This document shows, piece after piece, positions 9,722-59,464 of a stretch of 64,000 bases of DNA. A model generated the notes under the pieces. It saw nothing but the letters and a program-made list of their open reading frames with translations. It was not told the DNA's origin and ran no database searches. The DNA comes from Chloroflexota bacterium (GTDB taxonomy: Bacteria; Chloroflexota; UBA6077; CF-72): the NCBI GenBank assembly GCA_019247515.1, contig JAFAOS010000191.1, positions 1 through 64,000 of the forward strand. The letters run 5' to 3'. Positions within the stretch are counted from its first letter, which is position 1. Each line of letters starts with the position of its first letter. The position numbers and the translations under genes were made by a program.

Positions 9722-9804
9722 TGCATGCTCCTCCCTTTCGGTGTGCGAGGGATGATACGTGGCTTCGTGATAGCGTTTCGGCCAGAATCTTGACCGCCCT
9801 CCCG

Positions 9805-11673
9805 ATGCGACGACTCACCCTGGCCCTCGCGCTCAGCTTGTTGATCGTCGCCAGCGGCACGCTGCCGGCGGCCGCCGATCGCTGGTACGACTCGTCGCCG
9901 GTCCTGGGCATCATCGACGCGAGTCGTCAGCCTGCGGCGGCGCGTCGAGCCGGCGCGACGTGGGATCGAGCCCTGTTCCTGTGGCAGCTCGTGCAACCCA
10001 ACGGCCCCAGCGACTGGGCGCTGGACAGCTATGTCAGCCGCGCCAGGCTGGACACCACGCTGTCGACCGGCCTGCCGGTGGTCGGCGTGGTGCAGGGCAC
10101 GCCGGCCTGGGCTGACACCGACTATCACGACGGCGCCGCGGGTGTTCCGACGGGCCTCGACTACCCGGTCGACGATCCGCGCAACACGTTCGGGCAATAC
10201 ATGTTGCGCCTGGCGCAGGCGTACAAGGGCCGCATCAACACCTGGATCATCTGGAACGAGCCCGACTTCCTGCCCGGTGAGTCCGGAACCTGGTGGACCT
10301 GGTCCGGCAGCGCCGCGGATTTTTACAAGCTGCTCAAGACCGGGTATCGGGCGGTAAAAGAGGTCGATCCCTCCGCCAGCGTCGTGTTCCCGGCTACGAC
10401 GTATTTCGCGGATGCCACGCACAATCGCGAGCTCTTCCTCAAGCGCGTGCTGGACGAAGCCAACAAGGATCCGGACTCGCCGCCGAACGGCTATTTCTTT
10501 GACGCGGTCGGCGTGAACCTGTACTGCTCGCTCGACGCGGTCTATCGCGTGTATGGCATCTACAACTCGATTCTGGCGCAGTTTCAGCTGCAGAAACCGG
10601 TGTGGCTCACCGAGACGAACTGTCCGGTCTACAACGACGCCACCGTGCCCGAACCCGCCTCCGGGCGCATCACCACCAACGAGCAGGCGGCGTATCTGAT
10701 CGAGGCGATCGCGCTGGCCCGCGCCGCGGGCTACCAGCGGATTGGCTGGTACACCATGGTGGACCACGACGCGAGTACCGGCATCGTCGACCGCTGGGGC
10801 TTGTTGCGGGCGGACGACACCCCTCGACCGGCGTACATGGCCCTGGAGGTGGCCAGCCAGTACCTGGCGCGCTCGGACCTGTCGGTGCGGCTCGCGCCGT
10901 ACGGCACGCTGACCGCCAATGGCTGGCCGGTCGCGCGCATCCTGGTGGACGATCCGCTGCAACACACGCGCGTGCAGGTCATGTGGCGGACCGCGGATGG
11001 TCCGTCGACCGTCAACGTGCCGATCAGTGGTAGCTCGGCTGAGCTGGTCGACCCCCTCGGGTTCTCGGCGCCGGCGGTTGCCGCGGACAACGGGTGGACG
11101 GTGCCTCTGCCGCCAGCGCGCGTGGCGCAGCCGTCCGACCCGCCGGGCTTCCAGTCGGGCGGCTATCCGGTGTTGCTGGTCGAATCAGGCGTGCCATTCA
11201 GTGGCTGGACGGCTGATCCACCGCAGTTGACCTCGCCGCTCATGGCGCTGGTCCCCTCGGCGCTTGAACCGGCGCCGTCCGCGCCGATCGTCGCCAGGCC
11301 AGGCGCGCCGGCGCCGCCGCCGATCGCGGCACTGCCGTCCGCGGTCCAGACAGGACCCAGCCTGGTGCTGAGCGTTGGCAACCCGCAACCGGGCGACCTG
11401 CTGCCGCGCGGCAAATACGTGATGCAGGGGCTGGCGTTTGATCGCTCGGCGAGCACGGGCAGCGGCGTCGACAAGGTCTCAGTCTTCGCCGAGGATCGAG
11501 ACGCGGGTGGCCAGCTGATCGGCAGCGGCGTCGTGGGCCAGCCGACGATCGACAGCTTTTCCGCGACGATCGACCTGAGCAAGACCAGCGGTCAGCACAC
11601 GCTGTACGTCTACGCGCGCTCGTCGGTGACCGGCAAGGAGACGATGGTCAATTTGCCAGTGAACGTGAAGTAG
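9805..11673 (+). CDS. Secreted glycoside-hydrolase-like protein with C-terminal Ig-like domain
   Basis: A 622-residue exported protein. I chose the ATG at 9805, which begins a classical signal peptide (MRRLTLALALSLLIV, cleavage near A24); the open frame runs further upstream without support. Residues 30-340 resemble a clan GH-A barrel: the acid/base would be E152 in IIWNEPDF and the nucleophile E270 in VWLTETN, the arrangement of GH39/GH5-like enzymes. A middle beta-rich part and a Pro/Ala linker (about 480-520) lead to a final domain with GVDKVSVFAEDRD and HTLYVYARSSVTGKE. That last domain recurs in the secreted protein at 47725-48579. Carbohydrate substrate unknown; it probably acts at the cell surface. 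Confidence 0.75.
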   Translation: MRRLTLALALSLLIVASGTLPAAADRWYDSSPVLGIIDASRQPAAARRAGATWDRALFLWQLVQPNGPSDWALDSYVSRARLDTTLSTGLPVVGVVQGTPAWADTDYHDGAAGVPTGLDYPVDDPRNTFGQYMLRLAQAYKGRINTWIIWNEPDFLPGESGTWWTWSGSAADFYKLLKTGYRAVKEVDPSASVVFPATTYFADATHNRELFLKRVLDEANKDPDSPPNGYFFDAVGVNLYCSLDAVYRVYGIYNSILAQFQLQKPVWLTETNCPVYNDATVPEPASGRITTNEQAAYLIEAIALARAAGYQRIGWYTMVDHDASTGIVDRWGLLRADDTPRPAYMALEVASQYLARSDLSVRLAPYGTLTANGWPVARILVDDPLQHTRVQVMWRTADGPSTVNVPISGSSAELVDPLGFSAPAVAADNGWTVPLPPARVAQPSDPPGFQSGGYPVLLVESGVPFSGWTADPPQLTSPLMALVPSALEPAPSAPIVARPGAPAPPPIAALPSAVQTGPSLVLSVGNPQPGDLLPRGKYVMQGLAFDRSASTGSGVDKVSVFAEDRDAGGQLIGSGVVGQPTIDSFSATIDLSKTSGQHTLYVYARSSVTGKETMVNLPVNVK

Positions 11674-11675
11674 TC

Positions 11676-12126
11676 TTTCCCCAGAGGGGACCCATAGGGG
11701 AGAACGCGCTTCTTCCAGAGGGTGCGACACAGGCATTTTCCCCAGAGGGGACGCATTCGGGAGCAGGCGCTTCTTCCAGCGGCGTCGACAGACGTTTTTT
11801 CCCCAGAGGGGACCCATTCGGGAGAACGCGCTTCTTCCAGCGGCGTCGACAGACGTTTTTCCCGAGAAGGGACCCATTCGGGAGAACCTCTCTTCCAGGG
11901 AATGCCATGCGTCCCGCACCGGTCATCGGACGAAAAAATGTTCATGATGACTGTCGTCACAAGAGGCGTCGACAGACATTTCCCAGAGGGGACCCATTCG
12001 GGAGAACGCCTTGTTCCACAGAACGTTGCGATGGTCCCCGCACCCGCCATCGGGCGAAGAAAACTGTTCCCCTTGTGGGTCGTCACACCCCGTGTGGTCG
12101 ACGAATGTCCCCGTGGGGCGATCGTC
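11676..12126. repeat. Degenerate tandem array, about 60-bp period (family D), with no gene in it
   Basis: This 450-bp gene-free stretch holds five recognisable copies of a unit opening with TTTCCCCAGAGGGGACCCAT, then TCGGGAGAACGCGCTTCTTC and CAGCGGCGTCGACAGACG, plus a weak sixth. The CCCC(A)GAGGGG cores start near 11679, 11740, 11801, 11860, 11981 and 12109, so spacing is 61, 61, 59, 121 and 128, close to multiples of 60. Copies 4 and 5 carry an extra related stretch (GCACCxGxCATCGGxCGAA, then GTCGTCAC). Each unit can form short hairpins. No convincing reading frame crosses it. It separates two convergent genes. Confidence 0.85.
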
Positions 12127-12753
12127 CTACTCGCTCCGATCCTCGATCTCCCACGCGTGATCCAGCGCGTGCCACGCGATGCGCCTTGCGGCGTACCGCG
12201 TCGGCCACCTCGCGTCCGCGACCGGGTTCTCGAGCGCCTCCACCACAGCCTTGCGAAACCCCGCCACGGCCCGTGCGTCCCCCCGCGCCGGCTGGCGCAG
12301 CTTGAGCCCGAGTCGGCCGGCGTAGGCGACTTCCGCGCCGTACACGTGGTCGACGATTTTGTCGCGATCGCGGCCGCCGCCGCGCGGACCCTTGCGCAGC
12401 TGAGCTGGCGCGCCGGCCACCACGTCGTCGAAAACGTTCCAGGCGGCCTCGACCAGCGCGACGAGCTTCCGCGCCTGCGCCGGCGTCAGCCGCTCAGCGT
12501 CTCGATCTGAAATCGCGCCTGGCGCGCCGAAGTCGGTGGTCGCCGAGCCGGGCAGCCGCTCCACGACCTGCAGCTCCTTCGACGGTGGGCGGAGTTTGGC
12601 GTGCTCGGCCGCGACGGCGTACCGCGGCAAATACTCCCCCAGCGCGTTGAGCGCAGCTTCTTCGTCGCGCCCCGACCGGCACCAGCCGGGCCAGTCGAAA
12701 GCGCAGGCGAAGACGCGTTTGTCGCCAACCTCGAGGTAGACGTCAGTCGGCAA
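12127..12753 (-). CDS. Unknown protein with DinB/YfiT-like helical domain
   Basis: About 208 residues. The open frame continues far upstream only as out-of-frame translation of the molybdenum hydroxylase gene; the protein-like part begins at PTDVYLEVGD, so I place the start at the TTG at 12753 (low certainty; no good ribosome-binding site). The first 60 residues (FDWPGWCRSGRDEEAALNAL) look like a small alpha/beta lead domain. The rest is helical, with His residues in DHVYGAE and in WHALDHAWEIEDR, reminiscent of the metal-binding DinB four-helix fold. It lies 17 bp below the hydroxylase stop, so they may be cotranscribed. Function unknown. Confidence 0.6.
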   Translation of the reverse strand: MPTDVYLEVGDKRVFACAFDWPGWCRSGRDEEAALNALGEYLPRYAVAAEHAKLRPPSKELQVVERLPGSATTDFGAPGAISDRDAERLTPAQARKLVALVEAAWNVFDDVVAGAPAQLRKGPRGGGRDRDKIVDHVYGAEVAYAGRLGLKLRQPARGDARAVAGFRKAVVEALENPVADARWPTRYAARRIAWHALDHAWEIEDRSE

Positions 12754-12770: not shown

Positions 12771-15092
12771 CTACACGGCTTTGCCGTTGACCGATCCGTT
12801 GCTGCGCCCGTTGCTCGGCTCGTCCATGGCGCGGCGAACGCGCTCTGGCGTGAGTGGAAGCTCGGTGACCCGCGCGCCAGTCGCCGCCGCGACCGCGTTG
12901 GCCACCGCCGCCCCGCCGGGAATGACGGGTGGCTCGCCGACCGGCTTGGCGCCAAATGGCCCGATGGGCGACGGCACCTCGACCAGCACCGCCTCCAGCT
13001 CGGGAATCTGGCGGGCCTTGGGCACCGTGTAGTCCATGAAGCTGGAGGTGATCGGCGTACCAGACTCGTCGTGGACGATCTCTTCGTACACCGCCCAGCC
13101 CACACCCTGGGCGCCACCGCCGTGGATCTGCTCCTCGACGGTGGCCGGGTTGATCGCCCGACCCACGTCCTGGACGACCACGTAACGGACCGGTTCGACG
13201 CGGCCCGTCTCGGGATCGACGCGCACGCGGCAAATGTGGACGCCGGTGCCCGGGCTGCGCTCGGTAATGGCCGATTCGCCCTTGCCGACAACCGGCTCGT
13301 GCCTGGCGCCAAACGAGGCGCTCAGGCGGTAGATCTCCTTCAGCGTCTTGACCTTGCCCGGCACGCCTTTGACGCGGACCTCGCCACCGACCATCTCCAG
13401 GTCTTCGACCGACGCTTCGAGCTCGGCTGATGCGATCTTGAGCACACGTTCGCGCGCTTCCTGGGCCGCGCGCAGGACGGCGGGACCCATGGTGTAGATC
13501 GTCTTGCTGCCACCCGTCGCGCCCGAGTACGGCGCGGCGTCGGTGTCCACGGTGGTCACCCGCACCTCGTCGGCGCTGTCCATGCCAAAGGCTTCGGCGG
13601 CGATGACCTGCAGGCCGTTGTTGGTGCCGGTCAGGTCGACCGAGCCGACGGCGACCTTGAGGGTGCCATCGGACTCGAGTCGGCACAGTGCCGACGCCGG
13701 CTCGGTCCCGCCGAACCAGCCGCCGAGCGCCACGCCAACGCCTTCGTTCGGCCCGGCCGCGGCCTGCTCGGCTCGATAGATCGGCTCGGCGCGTTCGAGG
13801 CACTGCATCAAGCCAATCGGCGGCCAGGGTGTGCCGTCGGGCCGAGTGTCGCCGCCGCGCGCGGCGTTCTTCTTGCGGACCTCCATCTGGTCCCCTCCGA
13901 GCTTGTCGATCAGCTCGGCGACCAGGCTTTCTCCCGCGAACATCGCCTGGGGCAGGCCCGGTGCTCGATAGGCGCCCGTCGGGGTCTTGTTGGTGACGAC
14001 CTCGGTGGCATCCAGGTCCAGGTTCTCCCAGCGGTAGAACACGCCGAGACACAGCGCGGCGTGGCCCGCCGGCGAGCCGGCCTTGGCGCCCGAATCAAAG
14101 ATGACCTCGCCCTTGAGCGCGGTGAACGTGCCGTCCTTGCGCGCGCCCGCGGTGACGCGGAACAGCGATGACGGCGCCGGACCGCTGGAGGTGAAGTCCT
14201 CGACGCGCGTATACGCCAGTCGGACCGGCCTGCCGGCGGCGACAGCGCACGCCGCGACGAGCGGCTCGATCAGCCCAAACTTGCCACCGAAGCCGCCGCC
14301 GACCGGCATCGCGTACACGCGCACCTGCGACGGCGACTTGCCGAGCACCGACGCCACGGTGTCCCGCGTGCGGAACATCGCCTGGGTGCAGGCGTAGACC
14401 ACCACGTTGCCGAGCGCGTCGATGGTCGCGGCGCACACCTGGGGTTCCATGTAGCTCTGGTGGACCCACGGCGTGCGGTATTCGCGCGTGACGACGACGT
14501 CCGCCTCGGCCAGAGCCTTGTCGACGTCGCCGCGGTGGTAGCGCTGGTGGCTGGCCACGTTGGGCGCCTGCGGCGCCTCGGCTTCGCTGCCCCGCGCGGC
14601 CGCGCCGTGCATGCCGAGCTCTTCGTCGTTGCCGCCCGTGCGCATGCGCACGACCGGCGCGTCGGGCTTGAGCGCGTCGAGCATGTCGACGGCCGGCGTG
14701 AGCGCCTCGTACTCGACCTCGACAAGCTGCGCGCCGTCCTCGGCGGCAGCCTCGGTGTCGGCGAGCACGACGGCCACGGGTTGACCCACGTACGTCGTGC
14801 GCTCGAAGGCCATCACGATGCTGCGACTTTCGACGGCGCCGCGCAGGTCGCGCACCGGCAGGTCCTGCGCGGTCAGGACGGCCACGACGCCCGGCGTTGC
14901 CAGCGCGGCTTGCTTGTCCACGGACACGATGCGCGCCGAGGCATATGGGCTGCGCACCAGTCGGCCGTGCAACAGCCCGGGCAGGACCAGGTCACCCGTG
15001 TAGCGCACCTGTCCCGTGAGACGTTCGGGCGAATCTGCCCGCCGCATCCGCTTGCCAACCAGGCGCAGCGGAGTCTGCTCTTCCACAGCCAT
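12771..15092 (-). CDS. Xanthine dehydrogenase/aldehyde oxidase-family molybdopterin-binding subunit
   Basis: A 773-residue large subunit of the molybdenum hydroxylase family. It has the N-terminal hammerhead domain (RYTGDLVLPGLLHGRLVRSPYA), the GGGFGGKFG loop near residue 265 that contacts the cofactor, TGAYRAPGLPQAMFAGE near 370, and the C-terminal PVGEPP stretch carrying the catalytic Glu. It lacks the AYRGAGR signature of form II CO-dehydrogenase. Such enzymes hydroxylate N-heterocycles, purines or aldehydes. The matching FAD and [2Fe-2S] subunits are not adjacent; the only small [2Fe-2S] subunit here is at 31530. It is divergent from the thioredoxin reductase-like gene across a shared palindrome. 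Confidence 0.9.
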   Translation of the reverse strand: MAVEEQTPLRLVGKRMRRADSPERLTGQVRYTGDLVLPGLLHGRLVRSPYASARIVSVDKQAALATPGVVAVLTAQDLPVRDLRGAVESRSIVMAFERTTYVGQPVAVVLADTEAAAEDGAQLVEVEYEALTPAVDMLDALKPDAPVVRMRTGGNDEELGMHGAAARGSEAEAPQAPNVASHQRYHRGDVDKALAEADVVVTREYRTPWVHQSYMEPQVCAATIDALGNVVVYACTQAMFRTRDTVASVLGKSPSQVRVYAMPVGGGFGGKFGLIEPLVAACAVAAGRPVRLAYTRVEDFTSSGPAPSSLFRVTAGARKDGTFTALKGEVIFDSGAKAGSPAGHAALCLGVFYRWENLDLDATEVVTNKTPTGAYRAPGLPQAMFAGESLVAELIDKLGGDQMEVRKKNAARGGDTRPDGTPWPPIGLMQCLERAEPIYRAEQAAAGPNEGVGVALGGWFGGTEPASALCRLESDGTLKVAVGSVDLTGTNNGLQVIAAEAFGMDSADEVRVTTVDTDAAPYSGATGGSKTIYTMGPAVLRAAQEARERVLKIASAELEASVEDLEMVGGEVRVKGVPGKVKTLKEIYRLSASFGARHEPVVGKGESAITERSPGTGVHICRVRVDPETGRVEPVRYVVVQDVGRAINPATVEEQIHGGGAQGVGWAVYEEIVHDESGTPITSSFMDYTVPKARQIPELEAVLVEVPSPIGPFGAKPVGEPPVIPGGAAVANAVAAATGARVTELPLTPERVRRAMDEPSNGRSNGSVNGKAV

Positions 15093-42339: not shown

Positions 42340-43590
42340 ATGCAGTACGTCAGCGAACTTCTCGGAGCGCCCGTCCGTGACCCGGACGGGAACGTCGTCG
42401 CGCGAGTATCCGATGTGTTGGTACCCGCCGACGCAGACTATCCGGCCGTCGACGCTGTCGCCCTCAAGCCTCCCAAGGGCGAGACGCGTATGGTTCCCTG
42501 GTCCGCGCTGCAGGTGCAGGAAAACGGCGGCGTCTCGCTGTCCACCGCCCTGGCCCAGACGCCGACGTTCGATCCGCCGCCGCACGAGCTCTCGCTGGCT
42601 CGGCAGGTGATGGACCACCAGATCATCGACGTCAATGGCGTGCGCGTCGTGCGCGTCAATGACCTGCAGCTGGCGCCCACCGAGGGCGCGTACCGGCTGA
42701 TCGGCGTCGACATCTCGACCGCCGGCCTGCTGCGCCGGCTGGGCGCCGCGCGGGTCCTCAGCGCGCTCGGCGTCAAGCTGACTCCCACCGCGATCGCCTG
42801 GGAAGCCATCGAGCCGGTCGAGTCCGGCGAAACAGGCGTCAAGCTCAAGGTCTCGCACGAGGATCTCGCCAGGCTGCACCCGTCGGACATCGCCGAGATC
42901 ATCTCGCAGCTCGACCAGCACCACGTGCAGGAAGTGCTCGAGACGCTCGACGACGAGGCGGCCGCCGACACCATTGGCGAGGTCAGTCCCGACCTGCAGG
43001 TGCAATTGCTCGAGGGCATGGAGCCCGAGCGCGCGGCGGACATCCTCGAGGAGATGGACCCCGACGATGCCGCCGACATCCTCGGCGACATGGAGCCCGA
43101 CAAGGCGCACGACCTGCTCAGTCGCATGGAGCCCGACGAGGCCGAGGACGTGCGCGAGCTGCTCAGCTATGACGAGGAGACCGCCGGCGGGCTGATGACC
43201 AACGAGGTCGTCACGGTGCCCGCCACGGCCACCGCCGCGCAGGCGATGCGCCTGGTGCGCACCCAGGCGGCGGAAATGGAAAACGTGTATTCGGTCTACG
43301 TCGTCGACGAAAACGAGGTGCTGCTCGGCGAGCTCTCCTTGCGCGAGCTGATCGTGGCCGACCCACAGGTGCCGATTGGCCGCGTCATGCACCGCGAGCT
43401 GATCCGCGGCCGGCTGGACGATACCGACCAGGAAGTCGCGCGGCTGATCGCCAAGTACAACTTGCTGGCGCTACCAATCGTCGACGACGTGGGCCACCTG
43501 CGTGGCATCGTGACCGTCGACGACGCGATGGACGTGATCCTGCCCGACGATTGGAAGGCGCGCATTCCGCGCGTCTACGCGCATGGGTAA
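42340..43590 (+). CDS. Soluble PRC-barrel/MgtE-N/CBS protein, likely divalent-metal sensor
   Basis: A 416-residue protein with a good ribosome-binding site before the ATG at 42340. Residues 1-75 are a PRC-barrel (LLGAPVRDPDGNVVARVSDVLV), with a second barrel-like part to about 170. Residues 185-285 are the MgtE N-terminal superhelix, rich in acidic residues (EEMDPDDAADILGDMEPDKA). Two CBS domains complete it (about 290-410; MTNEVVTVPATATAAQAMR). In MgtE these cytosolic domains bind Mg and gate the channel; here the MgtE membrane domain is absent. The next gene is an Nramp-like transporter, so this is probably its separate regulatory subunit (inference). Confidence 0.85.
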   Translation: MQYVSELLGAPVRDPDGNVVARVSDVLVPADADYPAVDAVALKPPKGETRMVPWSALQVQENGGVSLSTALAQTPTFDPPPHELSLARQVMDHQIIDVNGVRVVRVNDLQLAPTEGAYRLIGVDISTAGLLRRLGAARVLSALGVKLTPTAIAWEAIEPVESGETGVKLKVSHEDLARLHPSDIAEIISQLDQHHVQEVLETLDDEAAADTIGEVSPDLQVQLLEGMEPERAADILEEMDPDDAADILGDMEPDKAHDLLSRMEPDEAEDVRELLSYDEETAGGLMTNEVVTVPATATAAQAMRLVRTQAAEMENVYSVYVVDENEVLLGELSLRELIVADPQVPIGRVMHRELIRGRLDDTDQEVARLIAKYNLLALPIVDDVGHLRGIVTVDDAMDVILPDDWKARIPRVYAHG

Positions 43591-59370: not shown

Positions 59371-59464
59371 TTCGTCACAGGGCGTTAGCTCACGTTTGTG
59401 GCCGCCAGCTTTCGAAGTGCCGGCAATACTTCTCTGCAGAGAAGCAGACTCGTTCGGCGACGTG

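What the first reader, a model, noticed from the sequence alone, without database searches (positions are those of the whole stretch)
11676..12126. Gene-free array with a period near 60 bp and extended units
Cores at 11679, 11740, 11801, 11860, 11981 and 12109 are spaced near one or two times 60 bp. Copies 4 and 5 gain an extra conserved block. Units share an inverted CCCC/GGGG core and GTCGACAGAC. They are too diverged for a fresh microsatellite and too regular for chance. This could be a protein-binding array, a recombination array, or eroded MITE-like units.
Basis: seen in the sequence. Interest (0 to 1): 0.6.

Follow-up and report, generated by a model that had tools for sequence, protein, structure and literature searches.

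The report
Gene-end palindromic repeat with nested insertions
The array is one local, expanded copy of a short palindromic DNA repeat that is scattered between genes of one soil Chloroflexota genus, sits right next to gene ends, and has been invaded by a second tiny mobile element; it is a new family of a broadly familiar kind of bacterial intergenic repeat.

Summary
The array is real and intergenic. It consists of five copies of a 17-bp core, TTCCCCAGAGGGGACCC, at 11677, 11738, 11799, 11859 and 11979, plus two copies of a separate ~90-bp block ("B"). The sixth "core" (12109) is the end of the second B copy. The core occurs 216 times (<=1 mismatch) in this 8.3-Mb genome, 25 and 4 times in two congeners, and nowhere else found. 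In 1.08 Mb fetched because it carries hits, none of 227 cores lies in a gene. Orientation and position are strongly constrained: the TT side faces a gene, usually 0-15 bp past its stop codon (54 of 66). The gene-proximal core is the best preserved; the rest of each array decays and duplicates with locus-specific spacers. Three of four core loci in a congener have a core or core-like sequence at the orthologous junction here. B is a miniature mobile-type element: it sits in three palindromic repeat families, each time with GAG duplicated. The 61-bp unit is core + spacer + a B remnant; the 120-bp unit keeps B. This works like REP, NIME or BOX repeats but fails their sequence tests (tags, RAYT, dRS3 pattern). 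The mobilising enzyme and any function remain unknown.

The parts
11674..12126 (+). whole intergenic composite (core array plus two B blocks) between convergent genes
   Evidence: orthologous junction in congener G002 has the flanking genes nearly abutting
11677..11693 (+). core 1, gene-proximal, 3 bp after the stop codon at 11673, perfect match
11738..11754 (+). core 2 (1 mismatch)
11799..11815 (+). core 3 (perfect)
11859..11875 (+). core 4 (2 mismatches)
11979..11995 (+). core 5 (1 mismatch), overlaps the end of B copy 1
11713..11722 (+). half-core TTCCAGAGGG in unit 1; counterparts at 11774, 11835, 11893 and 12014; the B copies sit after the last two
11781..11797 (+). remnant of the right tail of B (GGCGTCGACAGACGTTT) inside the 61-bp unit; again at 11842-11858
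   Evidence: 1 mismatch to the tail of B copy 1
11899..11981 (+). B copy 1 (diverged; its right terminus is merged with core 5); boundaries approximate
12022..12118 (+). B copy 2 (diverged); holds the CCCCGTGGGG read as a sixth core; boundaries approximate
   Evidence: query 358-420 = window 12033-12095 matches places elsewhere in the genome that one search lists as B copies; sequence
9790..11673 (+). upstream gene (627 aa, no Pfam family at E<=0.001), stop TAG 3 bp before core 1
12127..12753 (-). downstream convergent gene (208 aa, no Pfam family at E<=0.001); absent from the orthologous junction in G002

Best explanation
The array is a locally amplified member of a dispersed, genus-restricted intergenic repeat family. 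The family's conserved part is an oriented 17-18-bp palindromic core, TTCCCC(A/G)GAGGGGACCCA. A core sits with its TT side a few bases from a gene end, usually just past a stop codon. Shown: some such positions are inherited by descent between species and others are lineage-specific; cores and neighbouring DNA are duplicated in tandem, so each locus has its own spacer and period; inner copies decay while the gene-proximal core stays near perfect. Shown by comparing filled and intact targets: a second miniature element, B (~90 bp), sits in the middle of palindromic repeats, the core among them, with GAG on both sides. Inferred for this locus: B inserted into a half-core, giving ~120-bp core+B units; one unit lost most of B by internal deletion, giving a 61-bp unit that was then duplicated. 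Inferred: both elements were spread by enzymes acting in trans that are not identified here, and the short hairpin promotes slippage. Possible but untested: as for E. coli REPs within 15 nt of a stop codon, the transcribed hairpin may tune translation or stability of the upstream gene.
For: Copy number and restriction to one genus. Never in called genes; convergent IGRs enriched (32 of 133), tandem 41 of 393, divergent depleted (5 of 160). Orientation: all 19 opposite neighbours are TT-outward. Anchoring: 54 of 66 stop-facing edge cores within 15 bp; one-sided clusters <=15 bp in 38 of 60 against 5.9 expected. Gene-proximal core best preserved: 0.47 versus 1.05 mismatches, 0 of 10000 permutations as extreme. 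Gain and loss between species. Descent: orthologous core or core-like sequence at 3 of 4 G002 loci, the fourth not resolvable. Tandem length variants. B with GAG on both sides in three target families with intact versions known. Unit anatomy in the window.
Against: No enzyme found: no Y1 transposase in the assembled genome, no core-bounded autonomous element seen among the fetched regions. No convincing target duplication for the core element (shared 4-mers in 10 of 20 versus 5.7 expected, p 0.022; 5-mers 2 of 20, p 0.22). 60 of 78 core-bearing IGRs have cores in one orientation only, so the core is not a simple terminal inverted repeat. The genomes are fragmented MAGs (G000 93% complete, 6% contamination), so length variants could be strain mixtures or assembly faults. 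Assignment of the 61-bp unit to a deleted B rests on one locus.
Confidence: 0.72

Rival explanations
1. The core is a host regulatory or architectural site (for a nucleoid, termination or mRNA-end factor) kept by selection at gene ends; arrays are by-products.
For: Tight spacing to stop codons, preservation of the gene-proximal core, persistence at 3 of 4 orthologous junctions, a seemingly concerted A/G state at position 7: G in 4 of 4 matches in G002 and 5 of 25 in G001, 3% of 221 in G000.
Against: Most gene ends lack it; in tandem pairs TT faces the stop in 18 and the start in 16 IGRs, both in 7; G000-specific gains at junctions that are empty in congeners; no excess of compensatory changes in the stem; no terminator- or promoter-like site in the array.
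Confidence: 0.3
2. A classical MITE: TTCCCCAGAGGGGACCC is the terminal inverted repeat of a transposon moved by a DDE transposase in trans.
For: 18 IGRs have cores in both orientations, TT-outward, 135-501 bp in the clusters printed; clean two-ended examples in G001.
Against: Interiors look unrelated between loci; no consistent target duplication; 60 one-sided IGRs, most without a matching inverted core at the far end; no autonomous partner seen.
Confidence: 0.2
3. A hairpin-driven satellite: replication slippage at a chance palindrome makes arrays, without any mobility of the core.
For: Spacers and periods are locus-specific and homogeneous within a locus; 1 versus 3 units in overlapping contigs.
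Against: The same core recurs 216 times and about half of the clusters (44 of 89) hold a single core: slippage alone cannot spread it between loci.
Confidence: 0.1
4. A structured non-coding RNA or terminator array.
For: The whole 453-nt stretch folds better than shuffles (z -3.74).
Against: No Rfam match, no terminator-like site, almost no consensus structure in 49 aligned B copies, single core, unit and B z-scores only -1.06 to -1.37; the array z-score is expected from repeated palindromes.
Confidence: 0.05

Closest known systems
NIME / dRS3 arrays of Neisseria (passages of PMC3898611 read)
   Same: short repeat with inverted ends alternating with other sequence in intergenic arrays of hundreds of bp; also a landing site for another mobile element (there phage Nf1)
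   Different: dRS3 is ATTCCC(N8)GGGAAT; that pattern has 0 hits in 1.08 Mb here; here spacers are locus-specific rather than a set of RS families
REP elements (E. coli REP; GTAG- and CGTC-tagged families; abstract and passages of PMC3733652, passages of PMC12306157 read)
   Same: 20-40-bp palindromes in high copy, between convergent and unidirectional genes; many within 15 nt of a stop codon
   Different: no enriched GTAG or CGTC tag, no Y1/RAYT gene in the assembled genome; mostly head-to-tail arrays
BOX elements of Streptococcus pneumoniae (passages of PMC3049150 read)
   Same: modular intergenic element, conserved ends, variable number of internal tandem modules, elements inserted into one another
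   Different: BOX has shared boxA, boxB and boxC modules and target duplications; here only the core is shared
Insertion sequences that target REPs (IS1397, IS621, ISRm22; abstract and passages of PMC1525189 read)
   Same: insertion in palindromic repeats, for ISRm22 at the palindrome axis
   Different: B is ~90 bp and non-coding; its mobilising enzyme is unknown

Membership tests
REP, GTAG/CGTC super-families | unpaired GTAG or CGTC tag at one end of the palindrome | tested here: not met
   GTAG within 10 bp upstream 6 of 221 (control 3), downstream 6 (control 3); CGTC upstream 7 (control 6), downstream 1 (control 8)
REP with RAYT | Y1/RAYT transposase in the genome | tested here: not met
   PF01797 0 matches in G000 (93% complete); rings in 5 of 14 control genomes
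REP (general sense) | short palindrome, high copy, extragenic | tested here: met
NIME/dRS3 | 20-bp repeat ATTCCC(N8)GGGAAT | tested here: not met
   0 hits in 1.08 Mb
MITE (core element) | paired terminal inverted repeats | tested here: inconclusive
   18 of 78 IGRs two-sided, 60 one-sided
MITE (core element) | target site duplication | tested here: not met
   no consistent duplication in 20 two-sided elements (4-mers 10 of 20, p 0.022; 5-mers 2 of 20, p 0.22)
MITE (B element) | target site duplication with intact target known | tested here: met
   GAG on both sides in core, CATTCTGAG and CAGAGAAGAATTGCC targets; 19 of 36 parsed copies (of 49) show identical 3-mers at machine-called ends
MITE (B element) | terminal inverted repeats shared with an autonomous transposon of the genome | not tested
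   ends GACTCC and CGTGG show no clear inverted repeat by eye; no genome-wide transposon survey was made
Intrinsic terminator | GC stem followed by a T run | tested here: not met
   0 found, shuffles 0.7
Rfam RNA family | match above gathering score | tested here: not met
   0 in the window

The most novel reading that the evidence does not exclude
The core is not a passive parasite but a gene-end anchored signal: an oriented motif that a genus-specific factor recognises just past stop codons, that changes in concert across loci between species (position 7 A or G), and from which new intergenic DNA grows inward, so that nearly abutting genes become separated by hundreds of bases of rapidly evolving arrays that in turn serve as landing pads for a palindrome-targeting miniature element.
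Probability: 0.18. Interest if true: 0.68.

Novelty: new variant of a known kind. Interest (0 to 1): 0.42.

Why it matters
It gives a traceable case of how intergenic DNA is born and grows in a compact bacterial genome: orthologous junctions with genes nearly abutting in one species and separated by 200-450 bp of core arrays in another, with position, orientation and order of events still readable. It also supplies a non-coding miniature element that targets the centre of three palindromic repeat families, a property described for full insertion sequences. It extends REP/NIME-like biology to a soil Chloroflexota genus in whose assembled genome no Y1 transposase was found. If the gene-end anchoring reflects recognition of a site near stop codons, the responsible factor would be new.

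Tried and rejected
REP/RAYT membership: rejected for lack of Y1 transposase and of tags. NIME/dRS3 membership: pattern absent. Terminator: none found. Conserved RNA: the core stem shows no clear excess of double changes over chance at any of five pairs; the B alignment gives almost no consensus structure (its flanks are variable, so this is weak). Target duplication of the core element: inconclusive to negative. Purifying selection on the core within arrays: core 0.13 versus spacer 0.18 mean pairwise difference in 17 of 20 arrays (three with spacer difference of 0.35 or more were dropped), p 0.089, core lower in 11 of 17, and this test favours the core because units were chosen by core match. 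Autonomous element: the one gene I saw between inverted cores of neighbouring junctions (L111 4799-6115) matches PMT_2, a mannosyltransferase family, not a transposase. L139 junction: uninformative, because the congener has another gene there. Fourth G002 core locus (L208): flank not resolvable in G000. One search was read in the wrong orientation and replaced. Literature: the searches listed no description of these repeats in Chloroflexi in the held library; subscription journals are largely not held.

Full report
OBSERVATION. The window stretch 11674-12126 is intergenic between a + gene ending at 11673 and a - gene whose stop lies at 12127. It holds five copies of a 17-bp core TTCCCCAGAGGGGACCC at 11677, 11738, 11799, 11859 and 11979 (0, 1, 0, 2 and 1 mismatches), spacing 61, 61, 60 and 120.

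DISPERSAL. Searching the window's own genome (G000, 8.3 Mb, 579 contigs) with the array gave 44 matches (40 of 146 candidates were scored, so a lower bound). The 18-mer TTCCCCAGAGGGGACCCA with up to one mismatch has 105+111 matches in G000, 12+13 in G001 and 2+2 in G002 (both same genus), 0 in the other 26 of the 29 genomes of the class examined, and 0 for the reversed-pattern control in all 29. An exact scan of genome contigs (one genome each for about 85,000 species) gave 5 contigs, all from one MAG, Chloroflexi bacterium CF_72 (the window's own genome may be left out there). The core is thus confined to one genus as far as these collections show.

POSITION AND ORIENTATION. I fetched 80 stretches of G000, nearly all because they carry hits, and used them with the window (81 stretches, 1,082,855 bases) and called genes with my own hexamer caller. 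Of 227 cores with <=2 mismatches, 0 lie inside called genes; 20 shuffled cores gave 0-3 hits each. Of 686 intergenic regions 78 carry cores: 32 of 133 convergent, 41 of 393 tandem, 5 of 160 divergent. Of 138 neighbouring core pairs in clusters, 119 are same-strand and 19 opposite, all 19 with the TT ends outward. The TT side faces the nearer gene in 50 of 60 one-sided regions; the distance is <=15 bp in 38 of 60 against 5.9 expected for uniform placement. For edge cores whose TT side faces a stop codon, 54 of 66 distances are 15 bp or less. In tandem regions TT faces the stop in 18, the start in 16 and both in 7, so the anchoring is to gene edges, with the tightest spacing at stops.

TERMINI VERSUS INTERIOR. 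In 32 same-strand arrays with at least two cores of <=2 mismatches, the gene-proximal core has 0.47 mismatches against 1.05 for the others, and none of 10,000 within-array permutations was as extreme; with a looser threshold the best core is the gene-proximal one in 50 of 62 arrays against 18.9 expected. Spacers differ from locus to locus and are homogeneous within a locus, with periods from 25 to 84 bp. Within arrays cores diverge almost as fast as spacers. This fits one maintained gene-end core per locus and dispensable inner copies.

COMPARISON WITH CONGENERS. The window junction in G002 has the upstream gene and the next gene but one (window 12771-15086, which I read as a xanthine-dehydrogenase-like gene; that name comes from no call) nearly abutting; both the array and the gene 12127-12753 are absent. 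The L146 element (convergent genes) is absent from G001 and G002, where the genes abut. The L088 8831-9041 element is absent from both congeners, and a G001 element (L203) is absent from G000. On the other side, three of the four G002 core loci have a core or core-like sequence at the orthologous place in G000: L161/L209 (region 277 bp in G000; in G002 the downstream alignment resumes 26 bp after the core), L088/L206 (277 versus 59 bp between alignments) and C355/L207, where the G000 copy is degenerate; the fourth was not resolvable. All four G002 matches have G at core position 7, as do 5 of 25 in G001, against 3% of 221 in G000. This looks concerted, but numbers are small.

INSTABILITY. The end of contig C463 and the start of C277 overlap at 97-98% identity over the two flanks but carry three and one copies of an 84-bp unit. 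In G001, contigs C328 and C659 overlap with 164- and 273-bp versions of one two-ended element. These are probably strain variants; assembly artefacts are not excluded.

BLOCK B. The 'extra conserved block' is an element of about 90 bp, GACTCC...CGTGG, with 49 matches in the genome (40 of 79 candidates scored) and one 41-bp partial match among 60 relatives. In the 1.08-Mb sample 53 hits were found, 49 near full length, 0 in genes, 33 in regions with a core and 20 without. It interrupts three repeat families whose intact forms exist in the genome: the core (TTCCCCAGAG / GAGGGGACCC), a CATTCTGAG...GAAGAATC repeat (intact in L134, minus strand) and a CTTCTCTTCAGAGAAGAATTGCCGGC repeat (20 copies with <=2 mismatches to its AGAGAAGAATTGCCGGC part, a few of them next to B), each time with GAG on both sides. 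An automatic comparison of end 3-mers parsed 36 of 49 copies and found them identical in 19; several of the rest have mis-called ends, but true departures also occur. In the window, B copy 1 (about 11899-11981) and B copy 2 (about 12022-12118) each follow a half-core. The 61-bp units 2 and 3 keep only the tail GGCGTCGACAGACGTTT of B. I therefore infer that 120-bp core+B units came first and that a 61-bp unit arose by deletion within B and was then duplicated.

FUNCTION. No Rfam family, promoter-like or terminator-like site was found. Core stem changes are not clearly compensatory. The single core folds as a five-pair hairpin of -7.1 kcal/mol (z -1.37); the whole stretch folds with z -3.74, which palindromic repeats explain. 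In E. coli, REPs within 15 nt of a stop codon are reported to stall ribosomes (passages of PMC12306157); the spacing here is the same, so a similar effect is possible but untested.

COMPARISON WITH KNOWN KINDS. It works like REPs, NIMEs and BOX elements: short, intergenic, repeated, modular. It is not a tagged REP, no Y1 transposase was found and it lacks the dRS3 pattern. Insertion of mobile DNA at the axis of palindromic repeats is known for insertion sequences; B is a non-coding counterpart. I rate it a new variant of a known kind.

LIMITS. Genomes are fragmented MAGs; counts from the sample are not genome-wide; gene calls are my own; no enzyme was identified; the literature library lacks most subscription journals, so absence of a description is weak evidence.

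Noticed in passing
window 59417-59447 (-): One copy of a third dispersed palindromic repeat, CTTCTCTGCAGAGAAGTATTGCCGGCAC-like; 19 copies with <=3 mismatches to a 19-mer of it in the 1.08-Mb sample, none in called genes.
   Followed up: partly
window 12127-12753 (-): 208-aa gene without a Pfam match; absent together with the array from the orthologous junction in G002.
   Followed up: partly
L170, intergenic stretch near its end (congener G002): A different tandem array (TGAGAGGTCCAGGATCC units) shortly after what looks like a stop codon, suggesting that gene-end arrays with other cores occur in the congener.
   Followed up: no
L111 4696-6173: A PMT_2-matching gene lies between inverted cores of neighbouring junctions; its called start lies about 90 bp past the core.
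   Followed up: partly
window 43009-43144: 36-bp period tandem repeat, 3.8 copies, in a region of long ORFs, probably coding.
   Followed up: no
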